From Microbotryum silenes-acaulis (Eukaryota; Basidiomycota; Microbotryomycetes; Microbotryales; Microbotryaceae), in contig QPFY01000003.1 of assembly GCA_003665825.1 (NCBI GenBank), positions 682,001 through 746,000 of the forward strand: DNA of 64,000 nucleotides, written 5' to 3'. Positions 48,529 to 58,426 of this stretch are shown one piece after another. The notes under the pieces are model-generated. The model was not told where the DNA came from. It was given only the letters and a program-made list of their open reading frames with translations, and did not search any database. A program made the translations under genes and the position numbers. How positions within the stretch are numbered: the stretch's first letter is position 1; each line of letters opens with the position of its first letter.

Positions 48529-49483
48529 CTAGTTCCCAGCGTACGCCTCAGGGAACTGCAGAAGAGGGAGAAGACACCGAAGCCGGCGCGGAAGTCAGGA
48601 AGCCAATGTCAGCACAAAGAGCTATGCTGAACGACAGAAACAGCAGGTGCGGTTTCTCACCTTGAATCCAAAATCGTCGCGCAAAATTTGCCTGATGGGC
48701 CCCACTCTCATATCGATCCAGCGTCCATCCGGGTCGCTTTCGTTCTTCGGCGTCGTGTGGAGCCTCGCGCACCTTGAGCCCTCGTACTCCATCCCTTCCC
48801 TGAAATAGAGCGTGGTCCTTCTCCCCGTCTCTTGATGCAGCTTAGTACAAACGAAAAAGTTGACGAATGTTGCACCCGCGTGATTCGAACTGTAATAGTT
48901 GAGCACTTCCAAGTCCGCGGACCCCACGGTCGCCAGCGCGAACGAGTATGTCGGGGTCCAATACTCCTTGGTCGAGGCTGTCGCATCGACTTTGTTCCAG
49001 GCAGTCCACCGCGATGACAAATCGGGTGTGAGATGTTGAAACGCTTCTGCGCCGGGAAGATAAGGTGTTTCCACCAGCTTGAAGGTGCCATTGGCGGTCG
49101 GGCTTTGAACGGTGGCCCCATCGTGGAAAGGAATTCTGGCCAGTGGAGACGGTGCACAGCCCGGATCAGCGTCAAGCCCAAATCGAGAGTGAGCAAAATT
49201 GAGACATGACGCACGGAACAAGAGACTGGGAATTACCAAATCCAACGTCGCAAAAATATCGTTCGCCCCCGCTCGCGTCCCAGTCGATGACGCAGCACTC
49301 GTGAGCAGTCGGTTTGAAACGGAGACCGACGACCTCGGGATCTTGACCAACTTGATAGTTGACGCGAGCGGCGACCTCGCTGACGCGGAAATCAAAATAT
49401 CGCAGCAGGGAAGCAAACAAGCTGTTGAGGAAGAAACAAAATCCGCCGCGGTCACGAAGCCGGATCAACCGCTCGAAGGCGGC
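48529..49483 (-). CDS. NAT: Arylamine N-acetyltransferase, exons 3-5 (C-terminal part)
   Basis: Exons: 49483-49215, 49135-48661, 48555-48529. NATs transfer acetyl from acetyl-CoA to arylamines through a Cys-His-Asp triad. All three residues lie here: Cys in DRGGFCFFLN, His in TAHECCVIDW and Asp in FCDVGFGN. Downstream, TPTYSFALATVGSADLEVLNYYSSNH matches the family's third domain, and the last exon encodes FPEAYAGN. On its own this part lacks the N-terminal ~108 residues. Exon 3 starts after a CAG acceptor at 49484-49486, immediately next to copia gag sequence. The missing part lies at 60637-61126 on the same strand, phase 0 on both sides; joined, the coding length is 1,098 nt (365 residues). 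Confidence 0.85.
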
Positions 49484-50304
49484 CTGTCCAAGAGGCGCAG
49501 TTTCGCCGCCGCCGCCCAGCCGAATTGTGTTTCAATAACTCTAACCCCCGAGCTCGGTAGGCGGCAGCCCAGGCGGTGTCAGGACACTCCTTTAGCCAGT
49601 GCATCTTGCGACAAGACGGGTTCGGGCACGGCTTGGAACAGGGTCGGGGCTGGGGGGCGGCGACGGCGGCAGCTGGAGCATCGACAGGACGGGCTTTGAC
49701 GTCGCGGTAGAGGCGTGCGAAGATCTCGGTGGCGGAGGGCGTCTTGGTGGAATCACCCTGGGCGGCGACAAAGGTGGTGAGCCAGGCGTCGAAGGACGAA
49801 GGAAGGCGAGCGAGCAAGTGCGATGCAAGGAGAGCGCTCACGCTGTGAGTCTTCCAGCAGCCGGGTGTCGTTCTCGAAACTGTCGCGAAATTGGAGGTCG
49901 GGGGTGACGGGCACAGGATCGGAGCTGAAGAGCCGTTGAATGACTGGGAGAAGGTCGACGGCGGAGACGGTGCCGTAGCGCTCGTGAAGCGCCAGCCAGA
50001 TCTTGGGTGCAGCAAGCGGTTCGTCGAGGTAGGGTGACAGGCCTGGGAGGACAGCTTGCGAATCGACGGATGCGCAAAGCGAGGAGCAGGCGTAGTGGTC
50101 CCACAGAGGGACGTACGAGGCAGGCCAAGACTCGAGGGGTACGCCTGTCTTGAGATAACGGACGACGCCGGATGGTAGGCGTGATCGGATCGCAAGGACC
50201 CAGTCTTGGTAGCCGGACGAGTTGCGAAGCAGCTCGGTCGTTGCAAAGGCCGCGGTGTGGGTGGGCGGGCGCAAGGGCGGCACATCGGGCAGAGCGGGCG
50301 TGGA

Positions 50305-50336
50305 AGGACCCGGGAAAGCTCAGCCCAATGTGCGTC
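50305..50336 (+). repeat. Left terminal inverted repeat of the TIR transposon
   Basis: 32 bp, exact reverse complement of 52020-52051. Preceded by the target duplication GGCGTGGA. Confidence 0.9.
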
Positions 50337-50807
50337 CCCGAAAATGTACAAATCGGACCCTCCGAACCCCAAACTGCGACTCAAAAGTGGTACAAATCGG
50401 AAAAATTGGCACTCCAGATCTTGGAGGTACGTCCTGGATGTGGTACAAATCGATGTACCTCGACCTCGCACCTCCCTGGTCAGTGGTCGTCCCCTGCTCG
50501 GCCATCGGCCGAGCACGTATCAGCGGCGGCGGTCTGGGATCAGTAGGCGCGCGCCGCGGGCCAACTGGCGGTCCAGTAGTTTGAATGAGTTTCTGAACAA
50601 AATTGGACGCGCGAGCCGATTGTAATAATGCAAAAAAATGCGCTTCACGCTCAGAGCTCACAGACGCTCACCAAATCAAGGGCGCTGGAAGTGAAACAAA
50701 TGCCAATAGACGCCCCTGACAGCCTCTGACCACCCTCACCTTGTGCCACGTCGTGACGTCGCGAGCATCCTACCCTGCGTGCCCTTGCTGAGGGCTAAGA
50801 GGACAGC

Positions 50808-51831
50808 ATGTCATCTACAGCAGCCCCTCCAGATGCACGAATTCAACTGCTCTTAGACGACGTGCTCGAGATTCCAGATGAGCAATTCGCCGCTATGTCT
50901 CCTGTTGCCGAGCTCACTGTCGGCGAGCTTCTCGCGTTCGAATTTACCCGGCCTGACCTGACCGCAACGCTCGCCGTATCCGAGTTCGAGCCAACATTCC
51001 ATCGGCATCAGATTCGCCCCAATAGCACCACCCGCGCCTTATTCAACAAGACTCACAATCTTCGAGAATTGTACGCCACCGGCTATCAATCCATCGAGGT
51101 TCGATCCCCTTGCATGTCGATAGTAAAACACTTGCCAATCGGTTCCGAAGCATTCTGGCAACATCTGGACTCTGTCGAGCAGCTGAAGTCAACCATCTCG
51201 GATAACGTTGATTGGCTGAGCAATGTTGAGGTCAATGACAAACGCGACGCCGCGTACATCAAGCTGGCAAGCGCCTTGCTTGTTGCATTTCGAACCCCTT
51301 CACTGCAATTGAGAAAAGTTGCTCATCACGTCGGCATTTGTATGCACCACAGTGCGCTATATTTACACAAAGCCGTCACCAGCAATGCCTCACTGCAGTG
51401 TTGAGAGCACCGAATCCCTCGGACTCGTCTCCAACATCGTGATTCAGGAGCTCTTTCCTACGCAAGCCAGTTCCGGAGTCTGCACCAATCGCAGCAGCCG
51501 CGCCCAAGCTCGAATCTTCTTCTTGAATGGTCACCGGGTCGTCAGCTGCCTTGACACCTACAACTCGAGCATGCAGACTGTTGAGCCCCCAGCTGGTTTT
51601 GGCTTCGACGGCCACACTCGGCGAGTCCTAGACCCACAGGCGCAAGCGCGATATTACCAGCTGCAAAGCTTCAAAGGGGTCCTTGCAGCGTCGTTGGCCC
51701 CGATTCGGAAGGGACTTGCACATGCTGGCGAGGAGAGGGGTATTAATGCAAACGGAGGGAGCGGAGCCGATAAGCGTTCGGGACCTTCGCTGGGTCCAAG
51801 CGGCCGGCTGTCAAAGCGGACGCGACGTTAG
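50808..51831 (+). CDS. Transposon-borne protein of unknown function
   Basis: Only gene inside the TIR element. Proposed exons 50808-51339 and 51383-51831 (44-nt intron, donor GTATGC, acceptor CAG); 326 residues. Without splicing, the first frame stops at 51404. The N-terminal half is mixed alpha/beta in appearance with acidic patches (IQLLLDDVLEIPDEQFAAM, TVGELLAFEF). The second half has a Cys/Ser-rich stretch, then HRVVSCLDTYNSS and GFGFDGHTRRVLDPQAQARYYQLQ, and ends in a basic Gly/Ser/Arg tail (GRLSKRTRR) that could be a nuclear or nucleic-acid-binding tail. I recognise no family: no RNase H-like transposase, zinc finger or helicase motif. It could be cargo, an accessory protein or an unrecognised transposase fragment. 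Confidence 0.6.
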
Positions 51832-52019
51832 TACCGGGTCGCGTCGTCGGAGCGATTTTTCGTATTTCTGGCTGTTGGAGAGCGATTTTTGGGCAATTTC
51901 AAGACATTGAATTTTTGGTTTTCGGAACTCTTCCAATGTACGACCGAAAATACGTACAAATCAACCCCTCAGACACCTCATCCCGATGTACAAATCGGCC
52001 AAAAATCGCCGTTTTTCGA

Positions 52020-52051
52020 GACGCACATTGGGCTGAGCTTTCCCGGGTCCT
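52020..52051 (-). repeat. Right terminal inverted repeat of the TIR transposon
   Basis: 32 bp, exact reverse complement of 50305-50336. Followed by the second GGCGTGGA. Confidence 0.9.
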
Positions 52052-52169
52052 GGCGTGGACTCGCGAAGCTTGGCTTCGAATGCAGAGGCGCCGGCGCCGG
52101 ACATGTTGCGAAGGGCGAAAAAGAAGAGCGAAGGGCGGGCACGTATGTGGCCGCGCTGGTGGCTCGGTT

Positions 52170-55100
52170 GGGCTTATAACCTGCTGTCCGTCTTCCAATT
52201 GGACCAACTCGGTTACCGCGTCTCCTTCGAATCTCGTCGTGCCTGCATCACTCAGCCCTCTGGCACCGTCGTCGCTACCGCTCAAGCCATCGGGAACAAC
52301 CTCTATGCCTTGGCGCTTGGATCTACACCCTGTACGCCAAAAGCCCTCCTTGCCACCCCTGCCAAAGTGCCCTTGCTGACTCTGCACCGTCGTCTTGCGC
52401 ACTTGCCCGTTACGCAAATCAAGAACATCGTGCAGAGAGGCTTGGTTACTGGGGTGGATTGGGTGTATTCGGATCAGGAGCTCCGGGATTTTTACTGCAA
52501 TGCTTGTCTCGCTTCAAAAGCGCATGCCCTCCCCTTTGCCCGATCCAAGCCCATCGCCGCTGGCCGCCTGGATCTCATCCATGTCGATGTAGCGCAAATG
52601 CCTCGCCCTACCTTTGGTGGACATCGATACATGCTGGTCATCATTGACGATTTCTCCCGCAAGCACTGGTGTATCCTCCTTGCGCTCAAAAGTGATGTCT
52701 TCCCTCGCCTCCGCGACTGGATCCTTGAAGTCGAGAACACCACCGGCGACAAGGTGAAGACCATCCGCTCTGACAATGGCGGCGAGTTCACCCTGCGCAA
52801 CTTCGTCGACTTCTGCTCAGGCAAAGGCATTCGCCGGGAACTCACAATCCCCTACACACCCCAACAAAATGGGCGTGTCAAGCGCAGCAATCGCACCATC
52901 AAGGAGGGTATCCTTGCTCTACTCTACTCTTCTGGCGCTGATTCACGCCTCTGGGGCGAGGCTGCTATGTACTTCGTGCACTGCAAAAACCTGATGCCTC
53001 ACGCGGGTATTGGTGGTGAGATTCCCGACACTTGTTGGCATGGCTTTGCACCGGACATCTCCACCCTTCGCGCCTTTGGCTGCCGCGCGTGGCATCACCT
53101 CCCCTCGGCGAAGCGCACCGACCTCGATCCTAAGGCCGTGCCCCTCCTATTCGTCGGCTTCGACCAAAATGCCAAGGCTTTCCGCCTCTTTGAGCCGTCC
53201 ACGCGCAGGATACACCTCAGCCGCAATGTCGTCTTTCGTGAATCCGAGTTTCCTGCACTCCAGTCTGTCACCGACGTTCGCGCTGGCCCCGTTCCACTCC
53301 CCATCGTCATTGGTGCCCACCCTGACCAGGTAGACCCCCTTGAGCCTTTGCTCGTTGCTTCCCCTCGCTCTCTCGCGCCCCGCGCTGAGCCACCCTTACC
53401 GGTGCCGGTAGCCCCTGACCAGGGCCCGCACCGCCCCTCCCCTGCCCGTGACGTCCCTGACCAGGACTTACTTGCACCCCCTGCCTCTGACCAAGGCTCC
53501 CCTGCTAGTGAGCTCCCTGACCCGGACTCACCCGCATCCAGCGCCTCTGACCAAGGCAGCTCCGACTCGGCCATCTCCACGCCTTGTCCTTCCCCGCGCC
53601 CCGTGGCTTCCCGTATGTTGCCCGTACCACCTTCACCTGCTCGGTCCGACTCTCCGGATCCGCTCGACCTCTTGCCACGCCCCCGCGATGTTGCTTCGCT
53701 GTGCCGGGCGCAGGAGTTTCCCGACGACGTGGATGATGCACTTCACTCGCCCTCTGCCGTGGCCTACCTTGCCTCTGGCACCGCCGCTCTACTCGAGACC
53801 TCGCCCGCCGACCCTACGGAACTGATCGCCCCCGCTCGCGACCCACCTCACTGGCGCGCGGCCATGGCCACTCCTCAAGCGGATGAATGGCGTCTTGCGG
53901 CCCGAGACGAGTTTAACTCGCTCTTGCGCGATTTTTCGGCGTTCACACCGATTGACGAGTCCCTCGTTCCAGCTGACTCCAAGGTCCTGGGCTCGCGCTT
54001 TGTCTCCGTACCAAACGTGACCAGCATGGCCAAGTCAAGTCCTACAAGGGCCGTCTCGTTGCCCGTGGTGACTCCCAGCGCTCTGGCATTGACTTCGACG
54101 AGACCTTTGCACCTGTGGCAAAATTCACCTCCATCCGTGCACTATTGGCTCTTGCTGCTGCTCATGGGTACCACATCCACCAGGCTGACATCGACAAAGC
54201 CTATCTCCATGGTAAACTCGACACACCCCTGTACATTCGTGTGCCCGACGGCATCTACATGCCAGGCAAGGTCCTTCAACTGCACCGGTCCCTCTACGGC
54301 TTACGCCAGGCCGGTCGCATCTGGAATGATGAGATCGACTCTGCATTGTCTGCACTTGGCTATGTTGCCACCGAATCCGACCACTGCGTTTACGTCAGGA
54401 CCACGGGGGATGTGCGCCACTACATTGCGCTCTATGTCGACGACTTGCTCATGATCAGCCCTTCTCTCCCAGAGATTGAGCGCACTCTTCAGGGTCTTGA
54501 GCAGCGCTTATCACGAAGGACAAAGATAGGAGAGGTGAGCCGGACGCAGGGGCTCGAGACGAGGACAAGGGCGAGTGACGAGTTGAGAGATGTTCTAGGG
54601 ACTTCTCACAAAAGGCGAGGACGAGGGACGAGTGCAAGGATGTGACCTTTGACGAGATTCGAGTTGCAGAAAGGAAGGAGAGAAGTAAGCTACGGAGATG
54701 GGGAACTAGACCAGAGGAGTCGGGGACGAGGTGGCGAGCTTGAGGAGGCGAGGCACGAGGATCACGTAATAGTGTTGAGGCTGAGGATCACGTAATAGAG
54801 CTTGGTTGAGGATCACGTAAGAGTCGGGGGCGAGAGGGTTGTGAGTGTGTAGCCGGAGGAGAAGAGAGCAGTGCAGGTGCCGAAGCGGGGAGAGGAGGTC
54901 CGAGGCGCGGGAAGGCCGAAGTCACGCGGATGATGCGGGTGCTGAGAGGCCGAACTCGGAGTGGCGAACTTCCATTCGTGACAGCGCTATGGTGTCAAAC
55001 AGCTTGGTGAGGCGGAATATGTCCTTGGCATCCAGATCCGGCGTTCTCCAGACGGCTCCATCTCCCTGAGCCAGGAGCAATACCTCAAGGATGTCCTTGC

Positions 55101-56662: not shown

Positions 56663-58426
56663 TCAATCGTCCATGTTGACGTCCCCTCGTGGCGCATCCG
56701 TGGCTGCCGGCCTCCCAACATCGTTCCTCAAGGCACGGTCGAGTTGCGTGGTCACGGTGCGGTATCGATAGATTGATCCACCGGGGCAAGCCCTTCGAGC
56801 CGTCTCCTCGGACGAGTCGACTGCGACTTTTGGTGCCGTTCGGGCGACCCGAGGCGCTGACTCGGGCGTCGCGTTTTGCTTGGCCTTGTTCGAAGTCGAC
56901 ACGACGGGTTCTCGACGAAGCGGATCCTCGGGTCCCTCCAACATGAGCGGTGAGTATGCAACTTCTCCCTTGACGGCGCATGACGGGGCGGACATCGTTC
57001 GAGCGGGTTTCTTGCTCTCCCGTGCAAAGTTGTGCTCGCACCGTGTCGCGACCTTGGTGTCGAACTTGGCTTTGGTGTCGCTGATGCTGTGGTGACCTCC
57101 ATGCTTGGGATTGGCGTTGCGAGGGAAGCCGGAGGGCAGCAGGGGAGATACACGTTCGATCTTGGCAACTTTGTCAAAGAGCTTCTCCTTGCTGAATCGG
57201 ACGTTGCTGCCGCCAGCTGCGGTGATCGCGCGACGGGCGGCGTCGGCGCTGAGGTTGGCGGTGGGGTCGTCGACGAGTTCGTTCTTGTCGAACAATGCAT
57301 CGGATGCGACCAAGTACAATTGTCGAACGGCCCGGATATGGTCGCAGAGTTCACGAATGTCGTCGGTGGAGAGAGCCGGGGCGTTGATTGGCGGCCCACG
57401 GGCAAGTCGTCGGTGAGCATGGTCGTAATCGCGGAGAAAGGTGTTCAGTTGAAACAGAGGGTTATCGATCGGCACCTTGATTGGTGCCTTGAACCCCCAC
57501 CCCTTGACCCCTCCAAAGTAGTCGTTGCCGAAAAGGAACGAGAGAACGAAGCGGCCGTCAGAGTCGAGCACTTTCGAGTCGGCGTCGAGAGCGGCGAGGT
57601 CAAGAATATCGACAGACTCGAATCGTCTGCTGTTTGCTCGCTTGCGAGGGAGGATCCGATACTTCGCAACCGATGCTGATATGAGCATGGCATAATCGCT
57701 GTCGCCGCTCACGAGGGCGGTACGTTCCGAGACGAGCTCGACACCGCCGATCGAGCCAAACTTGGTCGCGGCCGCGATGATCGGGTCCGTCTCGTGGGCG
57801 GCAAGGACGAACGATACATCGCCTTTCGAAGCGATCTTGCCCAGCTCGACCTTCCGACCTTGTCCTTTAAAGTCCTCTTCCCATGGTTGGGCTGTTGGGA
57901 AGGCCTTGTTGAACGCGTCTTCCGAGATCACGGGGATGGGCGAAGCGGAGAGGACGGACGTCGTTCTCTTCTTGAGACGGCCCTCCACCGTGGCCCTTTT
58001 CAACTCGAGTCGGAAACGGGGATGATCAAAGAAGACAATGAACTTGGTGAATCGCGAGTCTCGAGATGTCCAATCATGGATCAGGGACTGGATCTTGCGG
58101 AGGAACTCGCGTGCTTGGCCGTGCGGGTTGGGGTGGGACGAGGGCGAGGGCCACAGGTAGGTAAAGACCATTGCCGCATCGAAAATGAACACTGCAGATT
58201 AAACGGGGACAGTCAAGGTCATTACCATGTTGTCTAACCTAGTACTTGCAATGGAAGGCTCGGATGTGATGTGATGGGTCAAGGTTGCGAGAGAGAGCTC
58301 ACCATTGACGTCGTGCTCGACGAGCGAACGTATCGCCTGCCCGACCGTCCTGCAGGACCCCACCTTGCTTGCTGGCACTTTGGCCACGCTCGCATCGATG
58401 TACTGCGGGACGTACGTAACCCCCAT
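56663..58426 (-). CDS. XPG/FEN1-like PIN-domain nuclease family protein
   Basis: Exons 58426-58303 and 58191-56663; 550 residues. It resembles the XPG-type PIN fold: VFIFDAAMVFTYLW in place of the usual IDA-type first strand, FIVFFDHPRFRLELKRATVEGRLKKR (the 'VFDG...K...R..R' region), then ETDPIIAAATKFGSIGGVELVSERTALVSGDSDYAML. The last carries the acidic residues Glu175, Asp177, Asp205 and Asp207 of the XPG-I motif. LSFLFGNDYFGGVKGWG matches the following helix-hairpin region. Acidic positions needed for metal binding seem to be kept, but the N-terminus (MGVTYVPQYID) is divergent. The C-terminal ~150 residues are low-complexity. It lies inside the interval that divides NAT, on the same strand. 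Substrate unknown. Confidence 0.7.

What the first reader, a model, noticed from the sequence alone, without database searches (positions are those of the whole stretch)
50297..52059. Undescribed TIR transposon carrying one unknown gene, inserted in copia gag
The 32-bp terminal repeats are perfect, the 8-bp flanking duplication GGCGTGGA is exact, and joining the flanks restores the gag reading frame. Together these pin both borders to the base. GTACAAATC recurs five times near the ends. The only gene (326 residues in my two-exon model) has no transposase motif I know. A small TIR element with a dedicated, intact-looking gene of unknown function could be a new family or a cargo-bearing non-autonomous hAT/KDZ-like element.
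Basis: partly seen in the sequence, partly recalled or inferred. Interest (0 to 1): 0.88.

Follow-up and report, generated by a model that had tools for sequence, protein, structure and literature searches.

The report
Deletion derivative of a fungal transposon
The element is real and has moved, but its mystery gene is only the first and last pieces of a much larger transposase gene whose middle has been lost; the larger relative is a fungal transposon whose enzyme core matched none of the catalogued families it was compared with.

Summary
A 1747-bp element (50305-52051) has perfect 32-bp inverted ends and an exact 8-bp duplication (GGCGTGGA), and sits in a copia gag start that rejoins in frame. 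The genome (a Microbotryum, judged from its closest proteins) has at least seven near-full-length copies, shorter deletion forms and 242-bp MITEs. Eleven of the 12 fetched copies with both ends have exact, different 8-bp duplications.

The "dedicated unknown gene" is not one. A broken larger relative in the same genome places the join at 51268/51269. Left of it is the first exon of a large transposase gene; right of it the sequence begins 11 nt inside that gene's last intron and runs through its last exon. In M. silenes-dioicae a 1183-aa protein starts with the window's exon 1, and a protein two gene numbers on ends with its last exon. Related 6.6-kb elements show the deleted middle: an Ulp1-type protease and a transposase-like core. 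Copies of the fused ORF show no clear selective constraint.

So this is an internal-deletion derivative (Ds/KP type), presumably moved in trans. The parent's core matched no Pfam family, including the KDZ, hAT and P models tried. Its superfamily is unresolved; P-like is my leaning.

The parts
50297..50304 (.). left target-site duplication GGCGTGGA
   Evidence: exact match with 52052-52059
50305..50336 (+). left terminal inverted repeat, 32 bp perfect (arm of 40 nt, 93%)
   Evidence: both ends found in 12 of 28 fetched own-genome loci
50346..50354 (+). subterminal repeat GTACAAATC (1)
50390..50398 (+). subterminal repeat GTACAAATC (2)
50443..50451 (+). subterminal repeat GTACAAATC (3)
50808..51268 (+). 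remnant of exon 1 of the parent transposase gene (residues 1 to about 154)
   Evidence: DNA 91% between 50847-51268 and C13:266720-267149; protein 85% to the start of P0015, 1183 aa; 30% to the start of the type-B gene, E 5e-16
51268..51269 (.). internal-deletion junction; same junction in 8 distinct own-genome copies
   Evidence: base-level alignment to the two halves of the larger relative; junction count, L022 repeating L008
51269..51352 (+). remnant (84 nt) of the parent gene's last intron, missing its first 11 nt with the 5' splice donor; acceptor CACAG kept; read through by ORF 1
   Evidence: parental donor at C13:273448, match from C13:273437, acceptor ending C13:273354
51340..51382 (+).
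51353..51831 (+). last exon of the parent transposase gene
   Evidence: about 95% protein identity to the end of P0007; DNA 92% between 51269-52051 and C13:273437-272657; 36% to the end of P0013, E 1e-12; a 33-residue match to type B, E 3e-07
51954..51962 (+). subterminal repeat GTACAAATC (4)
51988..51996 (+). subterminal repeat GTACAAATC (5)
52020..52051 (-). right terminal inverted repeat, 32 bp perfect
52052..52059 (.). right target-site duplication GGCGTGGA
49753..50296 (-). host copia gag, downstream part (frame resumes across the insertion to a start codon at 52104-52102)
   Evidence: joined-flank translation; ORF listing

Best explanation
The element is a non-autonomous, internally deleted copy of a cut-and-paste DNA transposon. 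The parent carries one large, multi-exon gene (N-terminal region, Ulp1-type cysteine protease, zinc-finger-like segment by eye, transposase-like core, C-terminal tail). A single founding deletion joined exon 1 to a point 11 nt inside the last intron. It kept the inverted ends and the subterminal repeats that a transposase would bind, but removed the protease and the catalytic core. The shortened element then multiplied in trans using transposase made elsewhere, each insertion duplicating 8 bp. The ORF it carries is a leftover, not cargo. Shown: ends, duplications, copies, junction, identity of both ORF halves with a larger gene, loss of the middle. Inferred: mobilisation in trans, the subterminal repeats as binding sites, catalysis by the core, and that any product (198 aa if unspliced) is at most an incidental KP-like inhibitor.
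For: Copies and distinct 8-bp duplications. Exon 1 = start of P0015; last exon = end of P0007, whose gene number in M. silenes-dioicae is two after P0015's on a contig of the same length. P0010 overlaps the start of P0007 and holds the core; P0013 holds part of the core and a last-exon homologue in one protein. Own-genome DNA of a broken larger relative aligns on both sides of the junction, and the junction is shared by 8 copies. Two related 6.6-kb elements with the same type of ends, one with an exact 8-bp duplication, encode homologues of both ORF halves around an Ulp1 domain (E 5.2e-06) and a core; a stretch with three introns removed is open for 1050 aa. Pooled pN/pS 0.88 over 21 pairs of 7 copies, and codon positions vary alike: 38/311, 36/309, 32/310.
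Against: No intact parent with exactly these ends was recovered as DNA: the own-genome one is in two inverted halves without a detected catalytic core, and the one in M. silenes-dioicae is seen only as proteins. Both 6.6-kb relatives examined carry disabling changes. No transposition or expression data. Two of 7 copies still have the whole two-exon ORF open and a third is open as far as it goes, and the same junction-derived peptide is in M. saponariae proteins, so the ORF has persisted. The selection test has little power on copies that radiate from few ancestors.
Confidence: 0.94

Rival explanations
1. The derivative's protein is retained as a trans-acting repressor of the parent transposase, like the KP or 66-kDa products of Drosophila P elements; the intron-derived tail replaces the catalytic region.
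For: The derivative keeps the N-terminal 154 residues, which could hold binding or multimerisation functions; ORF 1 reads through the intron remnant to a 198-aa product, and a 198-aa protein of this form is annotated in M. saponariae (P0006). The junction peptide occurs in five M. saponariae proteins. Small P-element derivatives often encode repressors (PMC7776569, passages).
Against: pN/pS 0.88 and flat codon-position variation among 7 copies; only 2 of 7 have the whole two-exon ORF open and a third is open but truncated. No significant domain match in either half.
Confidence: 0.12
2. A dedicated single-gene element whose 326-aa product is itself a new kind of transposase or cargo.
For: A two-exon 326-aa model is open in the window; no significant Pfam match.
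Against: Both halves are the ends of a larger gene, and the sequence between them is parental intron.
Confidence: 0.02
3. The element belongs to, and is moved by, the KDZ or hAT transposons that abound in the genome.
For: 8-bp duplications fit; 71 KDZ-profile and 37 hAT-profile matches in the genome; KDZ elements lie beside ends of these families in L045-L047.
Against: The 3 loci with the parental-type core are in neither list. The KDZ elements examined have different ends. No matching ends within the held flanks of 8 KDZ-match and 8 hAT-match loci (flanks of about 1.5 kb, so incomplete). L045-L047 were chosen for proximity.
Confidence: 0.03

Closest known systems
Internally deleted P elements (KP type) of Drosophila and P-like elements of zebrafish (PMC7776569, passages)
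   Same: 31-bp inverted ends in Drosophila, 8-bp duplications, subterminal repeats, internally deleted forms, repressor product from a retained intron
   Different: No match to the P-type profiles PF21787 or PF21789 at the core loci; no THAP match; the parent carries an Ulp1 protease; fungal
P-superfamily transposons of rust fungi (P-1_PSt, P-1_MLP, P-2_MLP, non-autonomous P-N1_MLP and P-N2_MLP; PMC3164196, passages)
   Same: Same subphylum (Pucciniomycotina, recalled), 8-bp duplications, autonomous and non-autonomous forms
Kyakuja-Dileera-Zisupton (KDZ) transposons
   Same: 8-bp duplications for Zisupton (PMC12730594, passages); KDZ-profile matches in this genome
   Different: KDZ profile lists no match at the core loci; different ends
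Ulp1-carrying Mutator-like and Ginger elements (association recalled; papers seen only as search listings)
   Same: A transposon carrying an Ulp1-type protease
   Different: No MULE or integrase-type domain matched in the 13 relatives scanned

Membership tests
Internal-deletion (non-autonomous) derivative of a TIR transposon | Keeps both terminal repeats and flanking duplication | tested here: met
Internal-deletion (non-autonomous) derivative of a TIR transposon | Both arms collinear with a larger element encoding a transposase; middle missing | tested here: met
   the larger DNA copy in this genome is itself broken
Internal-deletion (non-autonomous) derivative of a TIR transposon | Moved in trans by the parent's transposase | not testable with these tools
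   needs an excision assay
P superfamily | 8-bp target duplication and about 30-bp inverted ends | tested here: met
   11 of 12 copies exact 8 bp; 32-bp perfect ends
P superfamily | TNP-like RNase H core | tested here: inconclusive
   PF21787 and PF21789 gave no match at the three core loci with E up to 10. By-eye motif order (LHVDD, SADGA, RD-x-KH-x-x-K, EHFFG-x-x-R) is a recalled resemblance. Structure models too poor (mean pLDDT 38.3 and 42.7)
P superfamily | N-terminal THAP domain | tested here: not met
   no THAP match in the window ORFs, L048 pieces or database relatives scanned
hAT | hAT C-terminal dimerisation domain | tested here: not met
   PF05699: 37 matches, none at the 3 core loci
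KDZ | KDZ transposase domain | tested here: not met
   PF18758: 71 matches, none at the 3 core loci
Mutator-like (MULE) | MULE transposase domain | tested here: not met
   no such match among the 13 members of A2 scanned against Pfam

The most novel reading that the evidence does not exclude
The parent is a previously unrecognised lineage or superfamily of cut-and-paste transposons, found so far only in Microbotryum: 8-bp duplications, AGGACCC ends, one gene fusing an Ulp1-type SUMO protease to a transposase core that no profile tried recognises, with several diverged lineages and separately arisen internal-deletion swarms.
Probability: 0.3. Interest if true: 0.62.

Novelty: new variant of a known kind. 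Interest (0 to 1): 0.42.

Why it matters
It turns an apparent orphan gene into a solved case: public Microbotryum annotation lists such deletion remnants as genes (P0001-P0006), although the ORF is exon, intron and exon debris. It also exposes a transposon family that couples an Ulp1-type protease to an unclassified transposase core, which makes the question of what a SUMO protease does for a transposon approachable. The same deletion in M. saponariae, and perhaps in M. silenes-dioicae (P0003 shows only a few junction residues), would help to date the derivative.

Tried and rejected
KDZ as partner: three KDZ-containing neighbours of matching ends were fetched (L045-L047), but their elements have a different inverted end (126-nt inverted match) and are nested neighbours. 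hAT as partner: no matching ends in the held flanks of the 8 hAT loci L037-L044. Structural classification of the core: two AlphaFold2 jobs gave mean pLDDT 38.3 and 42.7. A Foldseek run on the first gave nothing with E <= 0.001, best 0.047, and I give it no weight. PDB profile searches: for the whole alignment the credible hits were Ulp1-type proteases (best E 2.2e-05); the other hits had E of 0.29 or more, apart from one further Ulp1 entry at 1.8. For the core the best was 0.08, a VirB9 protein, which I take as chance. P-type Pfam profiles over the genome missed the core loci. An early reading that this genome has no type-A parent was dropped when the C13 halves were found. The similarity of exon 1 to P0015 up to residue 161 includes a chance tail: residues after about 154 are intron-derived. 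A third type-B core (C11:69982-70989, one stop) was not fetched. Rows dropped: L022 repeats L008's locus; L012 was left out of the selection test because of its large deletion, and codons with gaps or stops were skipped there. An earlier count said that all seven long copies have exact 8-bp duplications; that is wrong for L006.

Papers: PMC12730594, PMC10502011, PMC4469406, PMC7776569, PMC3164196 and PMC12210899 were seen as passages only; all others as search listings. In the passages read, TIR elements of Microbotryum are treated as one class. I found no description of this family in the listings of searches. Repbase could not be searched.

Full report
Setting. All 21 database relatives found in three protein searches are labelled Microbotryum: M. 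saponariae, M. silenes-dioicae and M. lychnidis-dioicae (the last search scored only the 7991 candidates sharing most words). I therefore take the host to be an anther-smut fungus of that genus; the species is not established.

The observation. The element runs from 50305 to 52051 (1747 bp), with 32 perfect bases at each end (40-nt arms, 93%) and an 8-bp duplication outside. Joining the flanks restores the start of a minus-strand copia gag. Five GTACAAATC motifs lie near the ends and nowhere else in the window.

Other copies. A genome search gave 104 matches, a lower bound. Of 28 fetched loci (two pairs overlapping), 12 carry both ends: seven of 1696-1775 bp including the window's own, three internally shorter ones (1558, 1111, 773 bp) and two MITEs of 242 bp. 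Eleven of the 12 have exact 8-bp duplications, all different; the twelfth (L006) has 7 bp offset by one. The seven long copies are 94.5-97.7% identical to one another, so none is very recent.

What the gene is. A protein search with the 326-aa model found seven proteins. One of them, P0007 (544 aa, BQ5605_C002g01666), carries the window's last exon preceded by other sequence. A tblastn of the genome with the same model also hit, weakly, two 6.6-kb elements with similar ends, C4:490008-496615 and C5:700255-706847. These (L048, L049) are 97.5% identical, begin with AGGACCCCCGAAAGCCCAGC, and L049 has an exact 8-bp duplication (ACACAGTC; L048 matches at 6 of 8). I call them type B and the window's family type A. 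Type B encodes a homologue of the window's first exon at one end (30% over 124 residues, E 5e-16) and of its last exon at the other (48% over only 33 residues, E 3e-07). Between them lie an Ulp1-type peptidase (PF02902, E 5.2e-06) and a long core with no Pfam match. Four consecutive exon pieces of L049 splice into a 1050-aa open frame without any change. Each of the two copies also carries disabling changes, so neither is shown intact.

The type-A parent. A profile search found P0015 (1183 aa, BQ5605_C002g01664), which starts with the window's exon 1 (85% over 163 aa; the last few residues are chance) and continues into a weak Ulp1 match (E 0.037, below the curated cut-off) and the core. P0007 is two gene numbers on, on a contig of the same length. 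P0010 from M. lychnidis-dioicae overlaps the start of P0007 and holds the core. In a further lineage P0013 has part of the core and a last-exon homologue in one protein (36% over 121 residues, E 1e-12). Thus one type-A gene appears to span from the window's exon 1 to its last exon.

The junction. In the window's own genome C13:266720-269045 (+) holds the N-terminal half of a type-A parent, and C13:273777-272657 (-) its C-terminal end with the terminal repeat. The window matches the first up to 51268 and the second from 51269 on. The parent's last intron runs from a GTGAGT donor at C13:273448 to the acceptor ending at 273354, and the window's match begins at 273437, 11 nt in. The peptide GYVRYIYTK of P0007 spans this splice. 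The window therefore has exon 1, 84 nt of the last intron without its donor, the acceptor (CACAG, ending at 51352) and the last exon. ORF 1 reads through the intron remnant to a stop at 51402-51404. The same junction is in 8 distinct own-genome copies. Its peptide is visible in five M. saponariae proteins, P0001, P0002, P0004 (slightly altered), P0005 and P0006. One founding deletion was therefore followed by spread, probably before these lineages parted, if the window's species is not M. saponariae itself.

Selection. Under the 326-aa model, 2 of 7 copies are intact and a third is open as far as it goes, lacking its last 26 nt; the other four have internal stops, and two of those lack the ATG. 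Over all 21 pairs pooled pN/pS is 0.88, and codon positions 1, 2 and 3 vary at 38/311, 36/309 and 32/310 sites, against 57/430 and 23/174 in the non-coding flanks. This is what drift after insertion gives. Individual pairs range widely, from 0.43 to 4.14. Power is limited because copies radiate from few ancestors, and the same holds for the two type-B copies (ratio 0.67).

Mechanism. A transposase made by a parent element would bind the subterminal repeats (GTACAAATC in type A; in type B GAGGCGCAT, of whose 5 and 6 occurrences in L048 and L049 four each lie near the ends), cut at the AGGACCC ends and reinsert with an 8-bp stagger. Ends, repeats and duplications are shown; binding, cutting and trans-action are inferred. 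A type-B derivative, L050, kept both ends plus one internal piece with other breakpoints, so such deletions seem to have arisen more than once; L050 has no matching duplication, so later rearrangement is possible. Whether type-B transposase can move type-A elements is open. The outer 20 bases agree at 17 positions but the subterminal repeats differ, and this genome showed no type-A catalytic core.

Which superfamily. The KDZ, hAT and P profiles tried against the genome list no match at the three core loci, and no Pfam transposase model matched the 13 relatives scanned. By eye, the order LHVDD - SADGA - RD-x-KH-x-x-K - EHFFG-x-x-R recalls P-type transposases, which are recorded in rust fungi with 8-bp duplications (PMC3164196, passages). 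This is a recalled resemblance, not a test; the first of these motifs is altered in P0015. Structure prediction failed to help.

Verdict. As a derivative it is an ordinary kind of thing; the parent family, with its Ulp1 protease and unclassified core, is the more interesting part.

Noticed in passing
L048:109-6716 and L049:156-6748 (C4:490008-496615, C5:700255-706847): 6.6-kb type-B relatives: one multi-exon gene with Ulp1-type protease and unclassified transposase core; 130 type-B-like ends in the genome at up to 1 mismatch, control 0.
   Followed up: partly
L045-L047 (C6:159500-164500, C5:116300-123500, C9:1161000-1166500): KDZ transposons about 92-95% alike with their own inverted end (126-nt inverted match, GACATAAAAAGTACGCC...) lying inside or beside ends of the AGGACCC families; whether they prefer such sites is untested, since the loci were picked for proximity.
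   Followed up: partly
L026:2443-2684 and L027:2341-2582: 242-bp MITEs with type-A ends and 8-bp duplications.
   Followed up: no
L050:21-1494 (C13:113450-114923): Type-B deletion derivative whose left end reads type A in its outer 20 bases and type B inside, suggesting end exchange between families; no matching duplication.
   Followed up: no
window 49452-50296 (-) and 52055-54454 (+): A copia gag on the minus strand lies head to head with a copia integrase fragment on the plus strand (PF00665, E 7.7e-12), so two copia remnants seem to meet near the insertion.
   Followed up: no
window 48622-49455 (-): ORF with a weak arylamine N-acetyltransferase match (PF00797, E 4.6e-05, just over the cut-off) directly beside the gag remnant.
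   Followed up: no
window 56663-58192 (-): 509-aa ORF with no Pfam match at E up to 0.1; by eye it recalls a PIN/FEN-type nuclease (recalled, untested).
   Followed up: no
P0001-P0007, P0017 (database proteins): Annotated Microbotryum genes that look like transposon fragments or fusions with neighbouring elements; P0017 appears to join the core to a copia polyprotein (by eye).
   Followed up: partly
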